Source: Solirubrobacterales bacterium (lineage in GTDB: Bacteria > Actinomycetota > Thermoleophilia > Solirubrobacterales > Solirubrobacteraceae). Taken from it: DNA of 44,698 nucleotides. The notes under the pieces are model-generated. The model had not been told where the DNA came from, made no database searches, and saw only the letters and a program-made list of their open reading frames with translations. The stretch spans positions 1 through 44,698 of the forward strand of contig JAFAPR010000021.1 of the NCBI GenBank assembly GCA_019247075.1, read 5' to 3'. Made by a program: the position numbers and the translations under genes. Shown here in pieces: positions 4,092 through 38,920 of the stretch; the first letter of the stretch is position 1, and each line of letters starts with the position of its first letter.

Positions 4092-6371
4092 TCAGAAGAA
4101 CGGTGCCAGCCCCTCCGCCCAGCCGGCCTGAAGCTCACTCACTGCGAGGCTTACCCGCTCGGCGATCTCGAGAACGGCTCCGCGCACCTCGCCGATGATG
4201 GTGCACGGGGCGGACGGCTCCGCCTGCGCCCACTCCTTTAGCGAAAGAGCCGAGCCCGAGACGATGAACCCCCGCCCGGGCGCCTCGGCGAACGGGTGCA
4301 GTCCGTCGGGCAGCTTCACCTGGACCCCGATCCGGCCAGCCACGCAGCACTCCGCCAGAGCCACGGCGACGCCCCCCTCGGCGATGTCGTGGGCACTTTG
4401 TAGCGCCTGTGAGCGGACTCCCGACCGGATCTTCTCCTGCGCATCACGGACACTGCCACCGTCCGTGTCGGGGAGGAGGCCACGCGGGAGCCTGCCCCAG
4501 AGTTTCTCCAGCTCAGAGCCGGCCAGCGAGGGCTCGAAGGGCCCGACCAGCGCGACCACGTCCCCCGCGCGCACGAAGCCCAGGCGACCCGTCCGCGTCA
4601 CATCCGGCACCTTGCCCACGATCCCAACCACCGGCGTCGGAAAGATCGGCCCGGCCGGCGCCTCGTTGTAGAGCGACACGTTGCCGCCCACGACGGGGAC
4701 CCCGAGCGCCTCGCACGCCAGCGCAAGCCCCTCGACCGCCTCGGTCAGCTGCCACGCGACCGCCGCCTTCTCAGGGTTGCCGAAGTTCAGGCAGTTCGTC
4801 AGGCCGAGCGGCTCGGCCCCCACGCAGGCGAGGTTGGCGGCGCACTCGTATACGGCCTCGGCTGCGCCACGCCGGGGGTCGGCGGCTACGCGCCGGCCGT
4901 TGCCATCGATCGAGACCGCGATCCCGGAGCCGTCGGGCAGCACCAGCACGGCCGCGTCGGCCTGCTCGGGGTGCCTGACGGTCCTCGACTGCACGAGCCA
5001 GTCGTACTGCTCAAACAGGGGGCGGCGGGAGCAGATGTTGGGGGATGCAAGCAGCGCTAGCAAGGTGTCGACGTCCGGCCCCGCGCCGGCGCCAGGGAGC
5101 GCGCCTTCGCGCATGCCCTCAAGACTCACGGGCTCGACGCGACCGGCGCCGGGCGCGGGCCCGACGTCGGCCCCCTCCTCCGTAGTAGCTCCCCCAACAG
5201 CCGGCTCCCTTGCTGGAGGAGCTTCTGGGTTCAGGTCGTAGAGGGGGCAGTCGTCGACAAGGACGTGGACCGGGAGGTCCGCCACGAGCTCGCCGTGGGC
5301 AAGCACGCGCACGCGGCCGGACTCGTTGACGTGGCCGATCGCGGTCGCGAGCGTCTCCCAGCGCTCGCAGGTCTCGAGCACGTCGTCGAGTCTCGAGGGC
5401 TCGATCACGCACAGCATCCGCTCCTGGGACTCGGAGATCATGATCTCGAAGGACTCCATGGCTTGCTCTCTGAGCGGCACGCGGGAGATATCGAGCTCGA
5501 TGCCCACGCCGCCCTTACTGGCCATCTCCGAGACAGATGAGGTGAGACCCGCGGCGCCCAGGTCTTGAAGCGCGACGAGCAGACCGCGCTCGAGCAGCTC
5601 TAGGCAGCACTCGAGCAGCTTCTTCTCCGCAAAGGGATCGCCGATCTGAACCGAGGGCCGCTTGGCCTCGTCGCCCTCGCCGAGCTCGGCGCTGGCGAGT
5701 ACGGAGGCGCCCCCGATGCCGTCGCGGCCGGTCAGCGCTCCCAGCAGCACGATCAGGTTGCCGGGACCGGCGGCGGCCGAGCGGATCAGCCGCTCGCGCG
5801 GGGCAAGCCCCAGGCACATCGCGTTCACGAGGCAGTTCTGCTCGTAACTGCGCTCGAAGTAGACCTCGCCCCCCACGGTCGGGACGCCGATCGAGTTGCC
5901 GTAGTGGCCGATGCCGGCGACGGCCCGCCCGAGCAGGTAGCGCGAGCGCTCCGAGTGCTGCGGTTCGCCGAACCGGAGTGAGTCGAGCAGCGCCACCGGG
6001 CGCGCGCCGACGGCAAAAATGTCGCGCAGGATTCCGCCGACCCCCGTGGCGGCACCCTGGAACGGCTCGACCGCGCTCGGGTGGTTGTGGGACTCGACCT
6101 TGAACGCGAGCGCCAGACCGCCGCCCACATCGACCGCGCCGGCGTTCTCACCCGGCCCGAGCAGGACGTGTGGCCCCGTCGTCGGCAACCGCCGCAGGAG
6201 CTTGCGCGAGTGCTTGTAGGCGCAGTGCTCGGACCACATCAGCGACAGCATCGCCAGCTCGACCGTGTTCGGCTCGCGCCCCAGGCGCTCGAGAATCAGC
6301 TCGTACTCGTAGTCGGTCAGTCCGAGCCGGCGGTGGCGTGGAGCCTCAGACAGGGACGCGGCTGTCGACAT
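4092..6371 (-). CDS. purL: Phosphoribosylformylglycinamidine synthase subunit PurL (small type)
   Basis: PurL is the ATP-dependent synthetase subunit that converts FGAR to FGAM with ammonia supplied by PurQ; PurS bridges the two. At 759 residues this is the short PurL of the three-subunit enzyme, not the ~1300-residue fused form. It opens with GLTDYEYELILERLGREP and MWSEHCAYKHSRK, followed by ALAFKVESHNHPSAVEPFQG, the ATP and substrate site typical of the family. A Pro/Ala/Gly-rich linker near residues 385-430 joins the two PurM-like halves. The ATG start overlaps the 3' end of purQ by 26 nt, pointing to coupled translation. Confidence 0.97.
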   Translation of the reverse strand: MSTAASLSEAPRHRRLGLTDYEYELILERLGREPNTVELAMLSLMWSEHCAYKHSRKLLRRLPTTGPHVLLGPGENAGAVDVGGGLALAFKVESHNHPSAVEPFQGAATGVGGILRDIFAVGARPVALLDSLRFGEPQHSERSRYLLGRAVAGIGHYGNSIGVPTVGGEVYFERSYEQNCLVNAMCLGLAPRERLIRSAAAGPGNLIVLLGALTGRDGIGGASVLASAELGEGDEAKRPSVQIGDPFAEKKLLECCLELLERGLLVALQDLGAAGLTSSVSEMASKGGVGIELDISRVPLREQAMESFEIMISESQERMLCVIEPSRLDDVLETCERWETLATAIGHVNESGRVRVLAHGELVADLPVHVLVDDCPLYDLNPEAPPAREPAVGGATTEEGADVGPAPGAGRVEPVSLEGMREGALPGAGAGPDVDTLLALLASPNICSRRPLFEQYDWLVQSRTVRHPEQADAAVLVLPDGSGIAVSIDGNGRRVAADPRRGAAEAVYECAANLACVGAEPLGLTNCLNFGNPEKAAVAWQLTEAVEGLALACEALGVPVVGGNVSLYNEAPAGPIFPTPVVGIVGKVPDVTRTGRLGFVRAGDVVALVGPFEPSLAGSELEKLWGRLPRGLLPDTDGGSVRDAQEKIRSGVRSQALQSAHDIAEGGVAVALAECCVAGRIGVQVKLPDGLHPFAEAPGRGFIVSGSALSLKEWAQAEPSAPCTIIGEVRGAVLEIAERVSLAVSELQAGWAEGLAPFF

Positions 6372-34270: not shown

Positions 34271-35284
34271 TCAGTTGACGCGGATCTGACCCGGCTCGCC
34301 CTCGACCAGGTGCCCGATGACCACGCCGGGCAGCTTGCCGGTCCGGTCGGCCGAGGTCGCGATGAGGAGGCCCCCTGACGTCATCGCGTCGCACACCAGC
34401 CAGCGCCGCGATTCCGAAACTGTTGGTGCGAACGCCGTGTAGGTATCGGCCTCTTCGCGGTTGCGGCGGGTGCCGCCGGCGAGCGTCCGCCCGTCCTTTA
34501 GGAGATCGAGCACGCCGGGGATCTCCGGCACGGCTTCGGCGTTGACCTCCGCCGCGACCCCGCTCGCGGTGGCCAAGCCGTGAAGGTGGCCCAGCAACCC
34601 AAATCCGGTCACGTCCGTGACCGCGTGCGCGTCAGCCGCGCGGGCAGCGGCGGCCGCCGCCGCGTTGAGCTCGGTCATGACCGCCACCGCGGCTGCGACG
34701 ACCTGGTCGGCGGCAAGGCCTTTCTTGAGCGCCGTCGCGACCACGCCGGCGCCCACCGGTTTTGTCAGCGCCAGCGCATCTCCAGGCCGGCCACCGGCGA
34801 TCGTCAGAAGCTCTCGCGGATTCACGGTGCCCGTCACCGACAGTCCGTATTTCGGCTCGGCATCGTCGATCGTGTGGCCGCCGAGGACCGCGACCCCGGC
34901 CGCGCTGGCCACCTCTTCTCCCCCGCGCAGGACTTGGGCCAGAGCTTCGGTTCCGAGATCCTCGACCGGCCACGCCACCAGGTTCAGCGCTGTCACCGGC
35001 CGCGCGCCCATGGCGTAGATGTCCGACAGAGAGTTGGCGGCTGCGATGCGGCCGAAGTCGTGAGGGTCATCGACGATCGGCGTGAAGAAGTCCACGCTCT
35101 GGACGAGCGCAAGGTCCTCGCGCAGGCGGTAGACGCCCGCGTCGTCCGCAATCGCGGTCCCAACCAGCACGTCGGGATCCTTGGGTCTTGGCAGCGCTTC
35201 AAGCAGCGACGCCAACTGCGCCGCTCCCGCCTTGCACGCTCAGCCCGCGCCGTGCGAGAAAGAGGTCAGCTTCAGGTTGCTCAC
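34271..35284 (-). CDS. selD: Selenophosphate synthase SelD containing selenocysteine (UGA at codon 15)
   Basis: SelD makes selenophosphate from selenide and ATP for selenocysteine and selenouridine synthesis. The body matches the family: ADDAGVYRL, TPIVDDPHDFGRIAAANSLS, LGGHTIDDAEPKYGLSVTG, VTDVTGFGLLGHLHG and DAMTSGGLL. From the first ordinary start (TTG 35215) the catalytic N-terminus is missing. Reading upstream in frame through TGA at 35240-35242 gives LKLTSFSHGAG-U-ACK, which aligns with E. coli SelD SHGAGCGCK, so the TGA replaces catalytic Cys17 and the essential Lys follows three residues later. The GTG at 35284 then yields 337 residues. The start sits 7 nt after a GATACT box, suggesting a leaderless mRNA. 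It is divergent from egtD. Confidence 0.9.
35200..35239 (-). promoter_or_regulatory. Bacterial SECIS-like hairpin in selD
   Basis: Immediately after the UGA, AGCGGCGC (35225-35218) pairs with GCGTCGCT (35212-35205) through eight base pairs including one G-U, closing the 5-nt loop AGTTG. A lower stem CAAG/CTTG can add four pairs. The second loop base is G, 24 nt after the UGA, matching the described bacterial SECIS pattern of a G in the first two loop positions 16-37 nt from the UGA. It should recruit SelB. Confidence 0.65.
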
Positions 35285-35385: not shown

Positions 35386-36420
35386 TTGACAGAACCCGAC
35401 GCGGCTGAAGACGTGGCCACCGAGTCAGCGCTGCAGAGGCAGGACTCGAAGATCAGGATCGAATCCTGGCTTGCGCGAGCGGATGAGCGCTCGCTCGCCG
35501 ACAACGTGCGCAAGGGGCTCACATCTCGCGTCAAGCAGCTGCCCCCCAAGCATTTCTACGACGAACGCGGCTCGGCGCTGTTCGAGCGCATCTGCGACCT
35601 GCCCGAGTACTACCTGACGCGGGCCGAGCGGGAGATCCTCACCGAGCGCGCCGAGGTGATCGTCTCGGCGACCGAAGCCGGCGAGCTGGTCGAGCTTGGC
35701 TCGGGCTCCCCCGACAAGGCGCGCCTGCTGCTGGACGCGATGTTCGCGCGGGGCGCGCTCGTCCGGTACGTGCCGGTGGACGTGTCCGAGGCCGCGCTCA
35801 CCGACGCGGCCGCCGAGCTGGCGTCCGAATATGAAGGGCTACAAATCCACGGGGTGGTCGCTGATTTCGAGCGCCAGCTAGACCGCATGCCGCAAGCGGA
35901 CGGGACACCCCGGGTGGTCGCTCTGCTGGGCTCGACGATCGGGAACTTTCCGCCCGCGAGCCGGCGCGCGCTGCTCGCACAGATCGCGACTCTGCTCGGG
36001 GCTTCAGATCGGCTGTTGATCGGCGCCGACCTGGTCAAGGATCCGGCGGTGCTCGAGGCGGCGTACAACGACTCGCAGGGCGTCACCGCCGAGTTCAACC
36101 GCAACATCCTCTATGTGATCAACCGCGAGCTCGACGGTGATTTCGACCCGCCGGCGTTCGAGCACGTCGCGTTCTTTGACCCTCGCCAGGAGTGGATGGA
36201 GATGCGGCTGCGCGCCCGCCGCAAGATGACTGTCCGGATCGCCGACCTCGGCCTGGAGGTCAGCTTTGCGCGTCGCGAGGAGGTCAGAACCGAGATCAGC
36301 GCCAAATTCACCCGGGCACGCCTTCGATCCGATCTCGCCGCCGCGGGCCTGGAGGTGCGCGAGTGGTACACCGACGACGAAGAGCGGTTCGCGCTCGCGG
36401 TGGCGGGGCTTTTGGGCTAG
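35386..36420 (+). CDS. egtD: L-histidine N(alpha)-methyltransferase EgtD
   Basis: EgtD trimethylates histidine to hercynine, the first step of ergothioneine (and selenoneine) synthesis. The 344-residue protein has the family signature LPPKHFYDERGSALFERICD near residue 53 and LPEYYLTRAEREIL next to it. The SAM site is VELGSGSPDKARLLLDA near 101, followed by VALLGSTIGNFPP and LLIGADLVKD. The C-terminal FFDPRQEWMEMRLRARR is also diagnostic. The start is taken as TTG 35386, which has no strong ribosome binding site; GTG 35416 is an alternative. No egtB, egtC or egtE is in the window. Its divergent neighbour is the selenoprotein SelD. Confidence 0.95.
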   Translation: MTEPDAAEDVATESALQRQDSKIRIESWLARADERSLADNVRKGLTSRVKQLPPKHFYDERGSALFERICDLPEYYLTRAEREILTERAEVIVSATEAGELVELGSGSPDKARLLLDAMFARGALVRYVPVDVSEAALTDAAAELASEYEGLQIHGVVADFERQLDRMPQADGTPRVVALLGSTIGNFPPASRRALLAQIATLLGASDRLLIGADLVKDPAVLEAAYNDSQGVTAEFNRNILYVINRELDGDFDPPAFEHVAFFDPRQEWMEMRLRARRKMTVRIADLGLEVSFARREEVRTEISAKFTRARLRSDLAAAGLEVREWYTDDEERFALAVAGLLG

Positions 36421-36456
36421 CCCGCCCGTCGCAGCTGTCCAGCGGTCCGTCTAGCC
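36415..36456. terminator. Inverted repeat spanning both convergent stop codons
   Basis: GGCTAG (36415-36420, egtD stop) pairs with CTAGCC (36451-36456, the stop of the opposing gene). GGGCTAGCCC at 36414-36423 is itself a perfect palindrome. The stem is short and there is no T tract, so its role as a terminator is uncertain. Confidence 0.25.
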
Positions 36457-38088
36457 GCCGTGCGCGAAGCTCTGGATGTCCTGCTCCAGCGTCCCCTCGC
36501 TCACGTACTGGCCGCTGTGGACGTAGAGGACCTTGCCCGTCGGGCCGATGAAGATCGTGGTCGGCAGCCCCACCATCGCCGCCATGGAGCGCAGCGAGCC
36601 GACCGTGGTCTGGTAGCTCGGATACGTGACGGGGTGCTTGCGCAGGAATGCCTGCGCGGCGCCGGCCGAGTCGTCGGTGTCGGCGCCCAGGAACGCGACG
36701 CGGCGCCCGAACCGGGCTGCCGCGGCGGCGAAGAGGCCGAACTCCTGCTGGCACGGGGTGCACCACGAGGCCCACGCGTTGATGACCGCCGGATAGCCGC
36801 GCAAGCTGCGGATCTCCCCGCTCAGTGAGGAGCCCGAACCGAGCAGCTGGCCCGCCTCGCGGTGCAGCGCCGCCAGCGGTGGTGGCGAGCCCCTCAGCTG
36901 CTTTAGCGCGGATGACAGACCGGCGGCTTCGGGCGGCGCGTGGCTGAGCGCCCCGCGCACCCGGCTCGCGAGCCGCGCCAGCGCGGGCCAAGCCGAGGTG
37001 GACACGTCGGAGTACCACAGGATCTGTCCGCCCGCCGAGGTGAGCACGAGCCAGGGCTCATCCTGGACGCCATATCCGTCGGCGACGCGTCCCGAGCGGT
37101 CGATCGCGACCGGATAGGACAACGGCTTCGGCAGCGCGCCGAGCAGCTGCGACAGCGCATGGGCCGACGGCTCCACGCTGCCCTCGTCGACAGCGGTCAG
37201 CGCCGGCAGCCGGTCTCGAGCTGCGGCTCGCTGGTAGCGGTTGAGGTCATCGAGGTGCGCGGCGAGGTTCGTCACCTCGGAATCCCAGCTGGCAAAGAAC
37301 AGATACAGGCGCGGGGAAGGCCCAGGCCCGACACGTACGGTGCCGCCGCCGGCCCGCGGAAGGGCGATGGTCGCGTCGGGCTTGATCGAGGGAATCGGCT
37401 GATACGAGAGCCGCGCGAGCACCGGTGGGTGATCTGGCAGCAGACGCGATGCCTCCTGGGCCAGCAGCTGGCCGGCCTGACCCACCGTGGCGTAGGACAT
37501 CTGGGTGAGGTAGACCCGCCGCAGTAAGCCCTTGGGATCGATCGCAAAAAGCGCCGGCGTGTGGTCGATCTGGCCGTGCTCCACCTCGGCGGCGATTCCG
37601 TATCGCGCCCACACCCGCCTGAGCGCCGCCGGCGGCGCCGTGAGGAAGCGCCACTGCCGCATCATCCCGTGGGCGAGCGAGTAGGCGCGCACGTCGCTGA
37701 CCTTGGTGGCGGTGGGGTTGGCATTGATCCCCAGCAGCGCCACTCGCGAGCCGGCGCCGCCCAGCAGCCGCCGCGCCTGCACCATCGAGTTCGTGGTCAG
37801 CGGGCAGATCGTCGTGCAGCGCGAGTCGACGAACGCGAGGATCACCACCTTGCCTCTGTAGGTGGTCAGCGATAAGCGCCGTCCGAACTGGTCGCTGAGG
37901 GTGAAGTCCGGCGCCCGCCGGTGAAGCTGGGTACCTGGATCGAGGTACGGATTGCGCTCGAGTGCCGCGGCTGAATTCGATGAGCGCACGAGCGCGCTCA
38001 CCCCTTCGGTAGCCCCCAGCACCACGGCAACCAACGCCACCAGCAGCGCAATCACCGCCCACGGTTTGTTCGCGATCTTGTTCGTCAC
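36451..38088 (-). CDS. Anchored SCO1/SenC - thioredoxin-like - TlpA-type fusion protein
   Basis: The 545-residue protein has one N-terminal membrane segment (residues ~9-30) and three thioredoxin folds outside the membrane. Domain 1 is SCO1/SenC-like: RAPDFTLSDQFGRRLSL, CTTICP at 81-86 and the distal His in HTPALFAID at 156, the usual copper ligands of CuA-assembly proteins. Domain 2 (about 205-375) starts PRLYLFFASWDSEVT, where the CxxC is lost. Domain 3 is TlpA/ResA-like with VINAWASWCTPCQQEF (CxxC at 423-426) and cis-Pro segment VGLPTTIFI. GTG 38088 was chosen because it directly precedes the anchor; the frame runs to 38205 but would overlap divergent ccdA. Likely copper or thiol delivery to cytochrome oxidase or cytochrome c. 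Confidence 0.88.
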   Translation of the reverse strand: MTNKIANKPWAVIALLVALVAVVLGATEGVSALVRSSNSAAALERNPYLDPGTQLHRRAPDFTLSDQFGRRLSLTTYRGKVVILAFVDSRCTTICPLTTNSMVQARRLLGGAGSRVALLGINANPTATKVSDVRAYSLAHGMMRQWRFLTAPPAALRRVWARYGIAAEVEHGQIDHTPALFAIDPKGLLRRVYLTQMSYATVGQAGQLLAQEASRLLPDHPPVLARLSYQPIPSIKPDATIALPRAGGGTVRVGPGPSPRLYLFFASWDSEVTNLAAHLDDLNRYQRAAARDRLPALTAVDEGSVEPSAHALSQLLGALPKPLSYPVAIDRSGRVADGYGVQDEPWLVLTSAGGQILWYSDVSTSAWPALARLASRVRGALSHAPPEAAGLSSALKQLRGSPPPLAALHREAGQLLGSGSSLSGEIRSLRGYPAVINAWASWCTPCQQEFGLFAAAAARFGRRVAFLGADTDDSAGAAQAFLRKHPVTYPSYQTTVGSLRSMAAMVGLPTTIFIGPTGKVLYVHSGQYVSEGTLEQDIQSFAHGG

Positions 38089-38164
38089 CGAGGTCTTGAG
38101 ACGATGATGGCAACTCGCGGCCGCATGGCCCGTCGGCACCCGTCCTGGTCTACGATTTTTTGCC

Positions 38165-38920
38165 GTGATTGCAGCGCTCACGAGCGACCCAGCAAGCGGG
38201 GTCACGGTGTTCGCCGCGGTCGCTGCCGGTGCCGTTTCCTTCCTCTCGCCGTGCGTGCTGCCGCTCGTGCCCGGCTACCTTTCGACGGTCGCGGGGGTCG
38301 CGCCGGCGGACCTCAGGCGGACGCAGAAGCGGCGGGTCCTGATACCGAGCCTGCTGTTCGTCGCGAGCTTCTCGGCGATCTTCGTGATTCTGGGGGTGGG
38401 AGCGTCCCTGTTCGGCTCGAGTTTCGCGGCCGATCGCTTGGTGCTCGACAAGATCGCCGCGGTGGTGATCATCGCGCTCGGCGTCTACTTCGTGTTGAGC
38501 ACGGTCGTGACGCGGCTCAATCGCGAATGGCACATCGACGCCTTGATGGAGCGCGCCGGTCGCGGTGGCCCGCTGGTCACGGGGGCGGCCTTCGCCCTCG
38601 CCTGGACCCCGTGCATCGGCCCCACCCTGGGGGCAATCCTCTCGGCGGCGGCGCTGTCCAGCTCGGCCCTGCACGGCGCCGTCTTGCTCGCGTTCTACTC
38701 CGCCGGCCTGGCGATCCCTTTCTTGCTCACCGCGCTCGCGTTCGAGCAGATGACCTCAGTGTTCACCGCGGTCAAGCGCCACTACCAGGTCGTGATCGCG
38801 GCTGGGGGCGTGGTCCTGATCGCGATGGGCGTGCTCGTCTGGTCGGGCGAGCTCTTCCAGCTCAACATCCAAGCCCAGCAGGCGCTCAACGGCTTGGGAA
38901 TCAACTTCTTCAACATCTGA
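38165..38920 (+). CDS. ccdA: Thiol-disulfide transporter CcdA
   Basis: CcdA passes electrons from cytoplasmic thioredoxin across the membrane to extracytoplasmic thioredoxin-like proteins used in cytochrome c maturation. The 251-residue protein has six membrane segments with the two active Cys in the expected places: VSFLSPCVLPLVPGYLSTV near residue 24 and FALAWTPCIGPTLGAIL near 145. The GTG start is 76 nt from the divergent SCO-thioredoxin fusion, which is its natural redox partner. Its distance from the ccm genes (10 kb) suggests separate regulation. Confidence 0.94.
   Translation: MIAALTSDPASGVTVFAAVAAGAVSFLSPCVLPLVPGYLSTVAGVAPADLRRTQKRRVLIPSLLFVASFSAIFVILGVGASLFGSSFAADRLVLDKIAAVVIIALGVYFVLSTVVTRLNREWHIDALMERAGRGGPLVTGAAFALAWTPCIGPTLGAILSAAALSSSALHGAVLLAFYSAGLAIPFLLTALAFEQMTSVFTAVKRHYQVVIAAGGVVLIAMGVLVWSGELFQLNIQAQQALNGLGINFFNI

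What the first reader, a model, noticed from the sequence alone, without database searches (positions are those of the whole stretch)
34271..35284. selD is a selenoprotein gene whose N-terminus is normally missed
Seen: the frame upstream of TTG 35215 continues through one TGA (35240-35242) to GTG 35284 and encodes LKLTSFSHGAG-U-ACK. Known: E. coli SelD has SHGAGCGCK with catalytic Cys17 and Lys20, and several bacteria use Sec at that Cys. A standard start at 35215 deletes the catalytic segment and ATP-site Lys. The organism should therefore have a full Sec insertion system.
Basis: partly seen in the sequence, partly recalled or inferred. Interest (0 to 1): 0.75.

Follow-up and report, generated by a model that had tools for sequence, protein, structure and literature searches.

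The report
Selenocysteine-containing SelD in Solirubrobacterales
The bacterium's selenophosphate synthetase gene carries selenocysteine (an in-frame TGA) at its catalytic position, so ordinary gene finders cut off its front end; such enzymes are well known, but this one sits inside a large branch that otherwise uses cysteine, so it looks like a recent switch from cysteine to selenocysteine.

Summary
On the minus strand, selD runs from GTG 35284 through one in-frame TGA (35242-35240) to the stop at 34273-34271. The TGA stands exactly at the catalytic Cys17 position of E. coli SelD. A standard caller starts at TTG 35215 and loses the catalytic segment. The genome (a Solirubrobacterales-type MAG, 87% complete) has selA-selB, a tRNA-Sec (UCA) and two formate dehydrogenases with TGA at the Sec position. 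Downstream of the UGA, 21 nt fold into a hairpin that meets every constraint of the published bacterial SECIS model; the miscalled TTG start is the UUG of its apical loop.

Sec-SelD itself is long known. Less ordinary: in the 88 genomes of the order with SelD, only this one and one divergent homologue show a TGA, although close relatives have selA/selB and Sec-FdhA. Trees place this SelD inside the Cys clade, and grouping it with Sec-SelDs is rejected. Best reading: a lineage-specific Cys-to-Sec change with a newly evolved SECIS. One such change in SelD is documented (Pasteurellales). Weak points: a single MAG with no independent copy of the locus, and tree tests that do not formally exclude a basal position for this gene.

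The parts
34271..35284 (-). selD coding region read with TGA=Sec, GTG start at 35284, TGA stop 34273-34271 (337 aa)
35240..35242 (-). in-frame TGA (Sec codon) at the position of E. coli SelD Cys17
35205..35225 (-). putative bacterial SECIS hairpin AGCGGCGC[AGUUG]GCGUCGCU: 8-bp stem, 5-nt loop starting 22 nt after the UGA, -12.9 kcal/mol
35213..35217 (-). apical loop AGUUG; its UUG (35215-35213) is the false start of the standard ORF
34271..35215 (-). truncated ORF that a standard caller reports (314 aa), lacking the GAG-U-ACK catalytic segment
35296..35300 (-). GAGGA, possible ribosome binding site 11 nt before GTG 35284
   Evidence: sequence; inference

Best explanation
selD encodes a Sec-containing selenide, water dikinase. 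SelB with Sec-tRNA(UCA) recodes the UGA at residue 15, guided by the hairpin at 35225-35205, and the Sec serves in place of the catalytic Cys. The enzyme makes the selenophosphate that SelA uses to form Sec-tRNA, so SelD depends on its own product. In this lineage the Sec most likely arose from a Cys codon (TGC to TGA), with a new SECIS hairpin evolving in the following coding sequence. Shown: the frame, the codon and its conservation, selA/selB/selC, other Sec proteins, the hairpin, and the tree placement among Cys-SelDs. Inferred: actual Sec insertion, catalysis by Sec, and the direction of the Cys/Sec change.
For: The TGA stands where homologues have Cys or TGA. selA, selB, tRNA-Sec and two Sec-FdhA are in the genome. 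The hairpin meets the published bSECIS model (loop 3-9 nt, stem 4-16 bp, G then U in the first loop positions, 16-37 nt from UGA, <= -7.5 kcal/mol; PMC13188914). With synonymous codons redrawn, 1.5% of sequences have any such hairpin and 0.14% one as stable; 14 of 102 Cys-selD have one, 1 of 102 as stable, against 27 of 38 other Sec-selD. Among the order's genomes with SelD only the window and divergent G222 show a TGA. The 72-row tree puts the window with three same-genus Cys-SelDs (support 99/94) inside the Cys clade. Grouping it with Sec-SelDs is rejected (p-AU 0.005 and 0.0095). A two-state model on the 113-row tree gives P(Sec) about 0.01 at the ancestor shared with its three nearest Cys relatives. 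Close relatives with Cys-SelD have selA/selB and Sec-FdhA.
Against: The TGA rests on one fragmented MAG; one base separates it from TGC, and no independent copy of the locus was found. The AU test does not reject a tree in which the window's SelD lies outside all Cys-SelDs of the order (p 0.31 and 0.38), so a retained or transferred ancestral Sec form is not formally excluded. No expression or biochemical data.
Confidence: 0.9

Rival explanations
1. Assembly or sequencing error: the organism has TGC (Cys) here like its relatives.
For: One MAG; one base from TGC; the relatives in its order carry Cys.
Against: The error would have to fall on the one codon where homologues use Sec, in a genome with the whole Sec machinery, and be followed by a bSECIS-type hairpin whose stability about 0.14% of synonymous sequences reach.
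Confidence: 0.07
2. The protein is Sec-SelD, but Sec is ancestral in the order and was kept only here (or this gene came from an unsampled basal Sec lineage), while the other lineages changed to Cys.
For: Other families of the class have Sec-SelD; AU does not reject a basal position (p 0.31).
Against: Nested placement at 99/94 and 97/93; on that tree a Sec ancestor would need several separate losses; P(Sec) at inner nodes 0.01 or less; the hairpin lies in a different register from those of the other Sec-SelDs.
Confidence: 0.2
3. A nonsense mutation: selD is a dying gene, or only the truncated 314-aa form is made.
For: A TTG ORF of 314 aa exists.
Against: Intact full-length SelD (372 bits), sole copy, in a genome that keeps Sec-FdhA and selABC; the truncated form would lack the catalytic residue and the conserved Lys.
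Confidence: 0.03

Closest known systems
Sec-containing SelD / SPS2 (second most widespread prokaryotic selenoprotein family, PMC13188914; 19% of SelDs in the reference set of PMC4561486)
   Same: Sec at the same catalytic position, SelD sequence, bSECIS-type hairpin downstream, in a Sec-decoding organism
   Different: Nearest homologues have Cys; its hairpin lies in another register than in Sec-SelDs of other groups
Pasteurellales SelD (the documented Cys-to-Sec conversion in SelD, PMC4561486)
   Same: Sec-SelD emerging inside a Cys-SelD clade
   Different: Another phylum (Actinomycetota); here one genome only, and the direction is less firmly shown
Sec-SelD of other Thermoleophilia-class families (L183-L190, L194-L196)
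   Same: Class and Sec position
   Different: Not sister in the tree; SECIS-like hairpin GCCCCAA[GGAC]TTGGGGC at +20, or one at +33, rather than at +22

Membership tests
SelD (TIGR00476) | Full-length match over the curated cut-off | tested here: met
   372.4 bits against 125, profile 1-309/311
SelD (TIGR00476) | Catalytic segment HGAG-[C/U]-x-C-K at the N-terminus | tested here: met
   HGAGUACK
Bacterial selenoprotein | In-frame UGA aligned with a redox Cys of homologues | tested here: met
Bacterial selenoprotein | bSECIS hairpin after the UGA | tested here: met
   -12.9 kcal/mol, loop AGUUG, 22 nt after UGA
Bacterial selenoprotein | selA, selB and tRNA-Sec in the genome | tested here: met
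Bacterial selenoprotein | Sec present in the protein | not testable with these tools
   needs mass spectrometry or 75Se labelling
Cys-to-Sec conversion in SelD | Sec form nested among Cys forms | tested here: inconclusive
   Nested with 99/94 support, but AU does not reject the basal alternative

The most novel reading that the evidence does not exclude
A recent, lineage-specific Cys-to-Sec conversion in SelD within Solirubrobacterales, with a SECIS that evolved de novo in a high-GC coding region; after Pasteurellales it would be a further case in this family, against the earlier finding that no Cys-to-Sec events were seen in SelD (Zhang et al. 2006, PMC1794560).
Probability: 0.7. Interest if true: 0.42.

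Novelty: new member of a known kind. Interest (0 to 1): 0.3.

Why it matters
It corrects the annotation of an essential enzyme of the Sec pathway whose catalytic end is lost in standard calling. If the Cys-to-Sec direction holds, it is a recent natural experiment: same-genus SelDs with Cys (68-70% identical) and the non-hairpin sequence from which the SECIS arose can be compared to see how a new UGA recoding site evolves.

Tried and rejected
A tRNA-Sec just upstream of selD was suspected by eye; no tRNA or Rfam match there; the real one is on C203. A conserved selD-egtD neighbourhood (selenoneine idea): no window neighbour found beside selD in relatives' flanks, so dropped; senA/senB were not searched. 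Selenouridine synthase ybbB: not found in the genome, so SelD here most likely serves Sec only. The 79-nt stretch spanning the UGA is not unusually stable (z +0.58); only the local hairpin is. The smaller 46-row tree left the placement unresolved.

Full report
Observation. On the minus strand the frame from GTG 35284 to the stop at 34271 contains one TGA at 35242-35240 and reads VSNLKLTSFSHGAG-U-ACK.... Standard calling gives only 34271-35215 from a TTG. Read through, it is full-length SelD (TIGR00476 372 bits), the only one in the genome. The GTG lines up with relatives' ATG/GTG starts.

Genome test. The window lies in a 3.88 Mb, 367-contig assembly, 87% complete. It holds selA and selB next to each other (C99), a tRNA-Sec with anticodon UCA (C203) and two formate dehydrogenases with TGA at the Sec position, in contexts CNRT-U-HAPSVVGL (C41) and NQARI-U-HSSTVPGL (C209), each followed by a hairpin with a GGUCU loop (the C209 hairpin as a simple stem is weaker, -5.7 kcal/mol). 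ybbB was not found.

SECIS. The 21 nt AGCGGCGC[AGUUG]GCGUCGCU at 35225-35205 form an 8-bp hairpin with its loop 22 nt after the UGA. Published constraints (PMC13188914) are all met. Drawing synonymous codons at the window's usage gives any such hairpin in 1.5% and one as stable in 0.14% of 5000 draws. Among real Cys-selD, 14 of 102 have some such hairpin and 1 of 102 one as stable; 27 of 38 other Sec-selD have one. The hairpin evidence is therefore good but not absolute. The loop's UUG is the false TTG start of the standard ORF.

Relatives. In 232 genomes of the order, 88 have a SelD match at E <= 1e-60. Apart from the window, only one match contains a TGA: G222, in a separate group at about 46-47% identity, also at the Sec position (QKAG-U-ASK). 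Of the order's SelDs whose DNA was read at this position, all others carry Cys. Other families of the class (f6, f8, f9, part of f10) have Sec-SelD. About half of the nearest 60 relatives have selA and selB, and six of seven close relatives that were checked have FdhA with TGA, so Sec decoding appears older than the Sec in this SelD.

Phylogeny (Sec/Cys column masked). The 113-row quick tree and the 72-row careful tree both place the window with three same-genus Cys-SelDs (L023-L025), with support 99/94 in the latter, inside the order's Cys clade. Holding the window with Sec-SelDs is rejected (p-AU 0.005; with the class's f8 Sec-SelDs 0.0095). Holding it outside all Cys-SelDs of the order is not rejected (p-AU 0.31 with 72 rows; 0.38 with 46 rows). 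A two-state model on the 113-row tree gives P(Sec) about 0.01 at the ancestor shared with its nearest Cys relatives; that figure takes the tree as given.

Literature. Zhang et al. 2006 saw Sec-to-Cys but no Cys-to-Sec changes in SelD (PMC1794560). Mariotti et al. [quoted passage not shown] Sec-SelD as such is ordinary; the case here would be a further conversion, in Actinomycetota. I found no paper on Sec in Solirubrobacter, within an open-access library only. The naming of the order rests on the titles of the nearest named records (Solirubrobacterales MAGs).

Verdict. Real, well supported, a new member of a known kind, with a plausible recent Cys-to-Sec switch as the only feature of special interest. 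Limits: one MAG, no reads, no independent copy, no experiment.

Noticed in passing
L132:16233-18626 (G000:C99, minus strand): selB is one open frame with a C-terminal methylisocitrate lyase/PEP-mutase-like domain (797 aa; prpB-type match at residues 534-732). Several relatives also show selB frames over 690 codons, but their extensions were not read; a fusion or a lost stop is possible.
   Followed up: partly
G000:C203:4487-4525 and 5536-5574 (L134): The 3' end of the tRNA-Sec gene is repeated exactly (39 bp) about 1 kb downstream, like the attachment sites of a decayed element integrated at selC; no obvious integrase was seen in the ORF list of the segment.
   Followed up: partly
35386-36420: egtD (hercynine-forming methyltransferase, TIGR03438 366 bits) lies divergently next to selD; no window neighbour was found beside selD in relatives' flanks.
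   Followed up: partly
36451-38205: 584-aa protein with an SCO1/SenC-type domain (residues 99-226) and a C-terminal TlpA/ResA-type thioredoxin domain (WASWCTPC) in one chain.
   Followed up: no
L183-L190: Sec-SelDs of family f8 of the class share a nearly invariant SECIS-like hairpin GCCCCAA[GGAC]TTGGGGC at +20, conserved at the nucleotide level.
   Followed up: no
L194-L198: In family f10 of the class, Sec- and Cys-SelDs pair as nearest neighbours twice over, so Sec/Cys exchange in SelD seems frequent there.
   Followed up: no
L173 (G222), L201, L222: A divergent SelD group (about 46-50% identity) with QKAG-U-ASK / AKSG-U-AAK in place of HGAG-U-xCK: Sec kept but the second Cys replaced.
   Followed up: no
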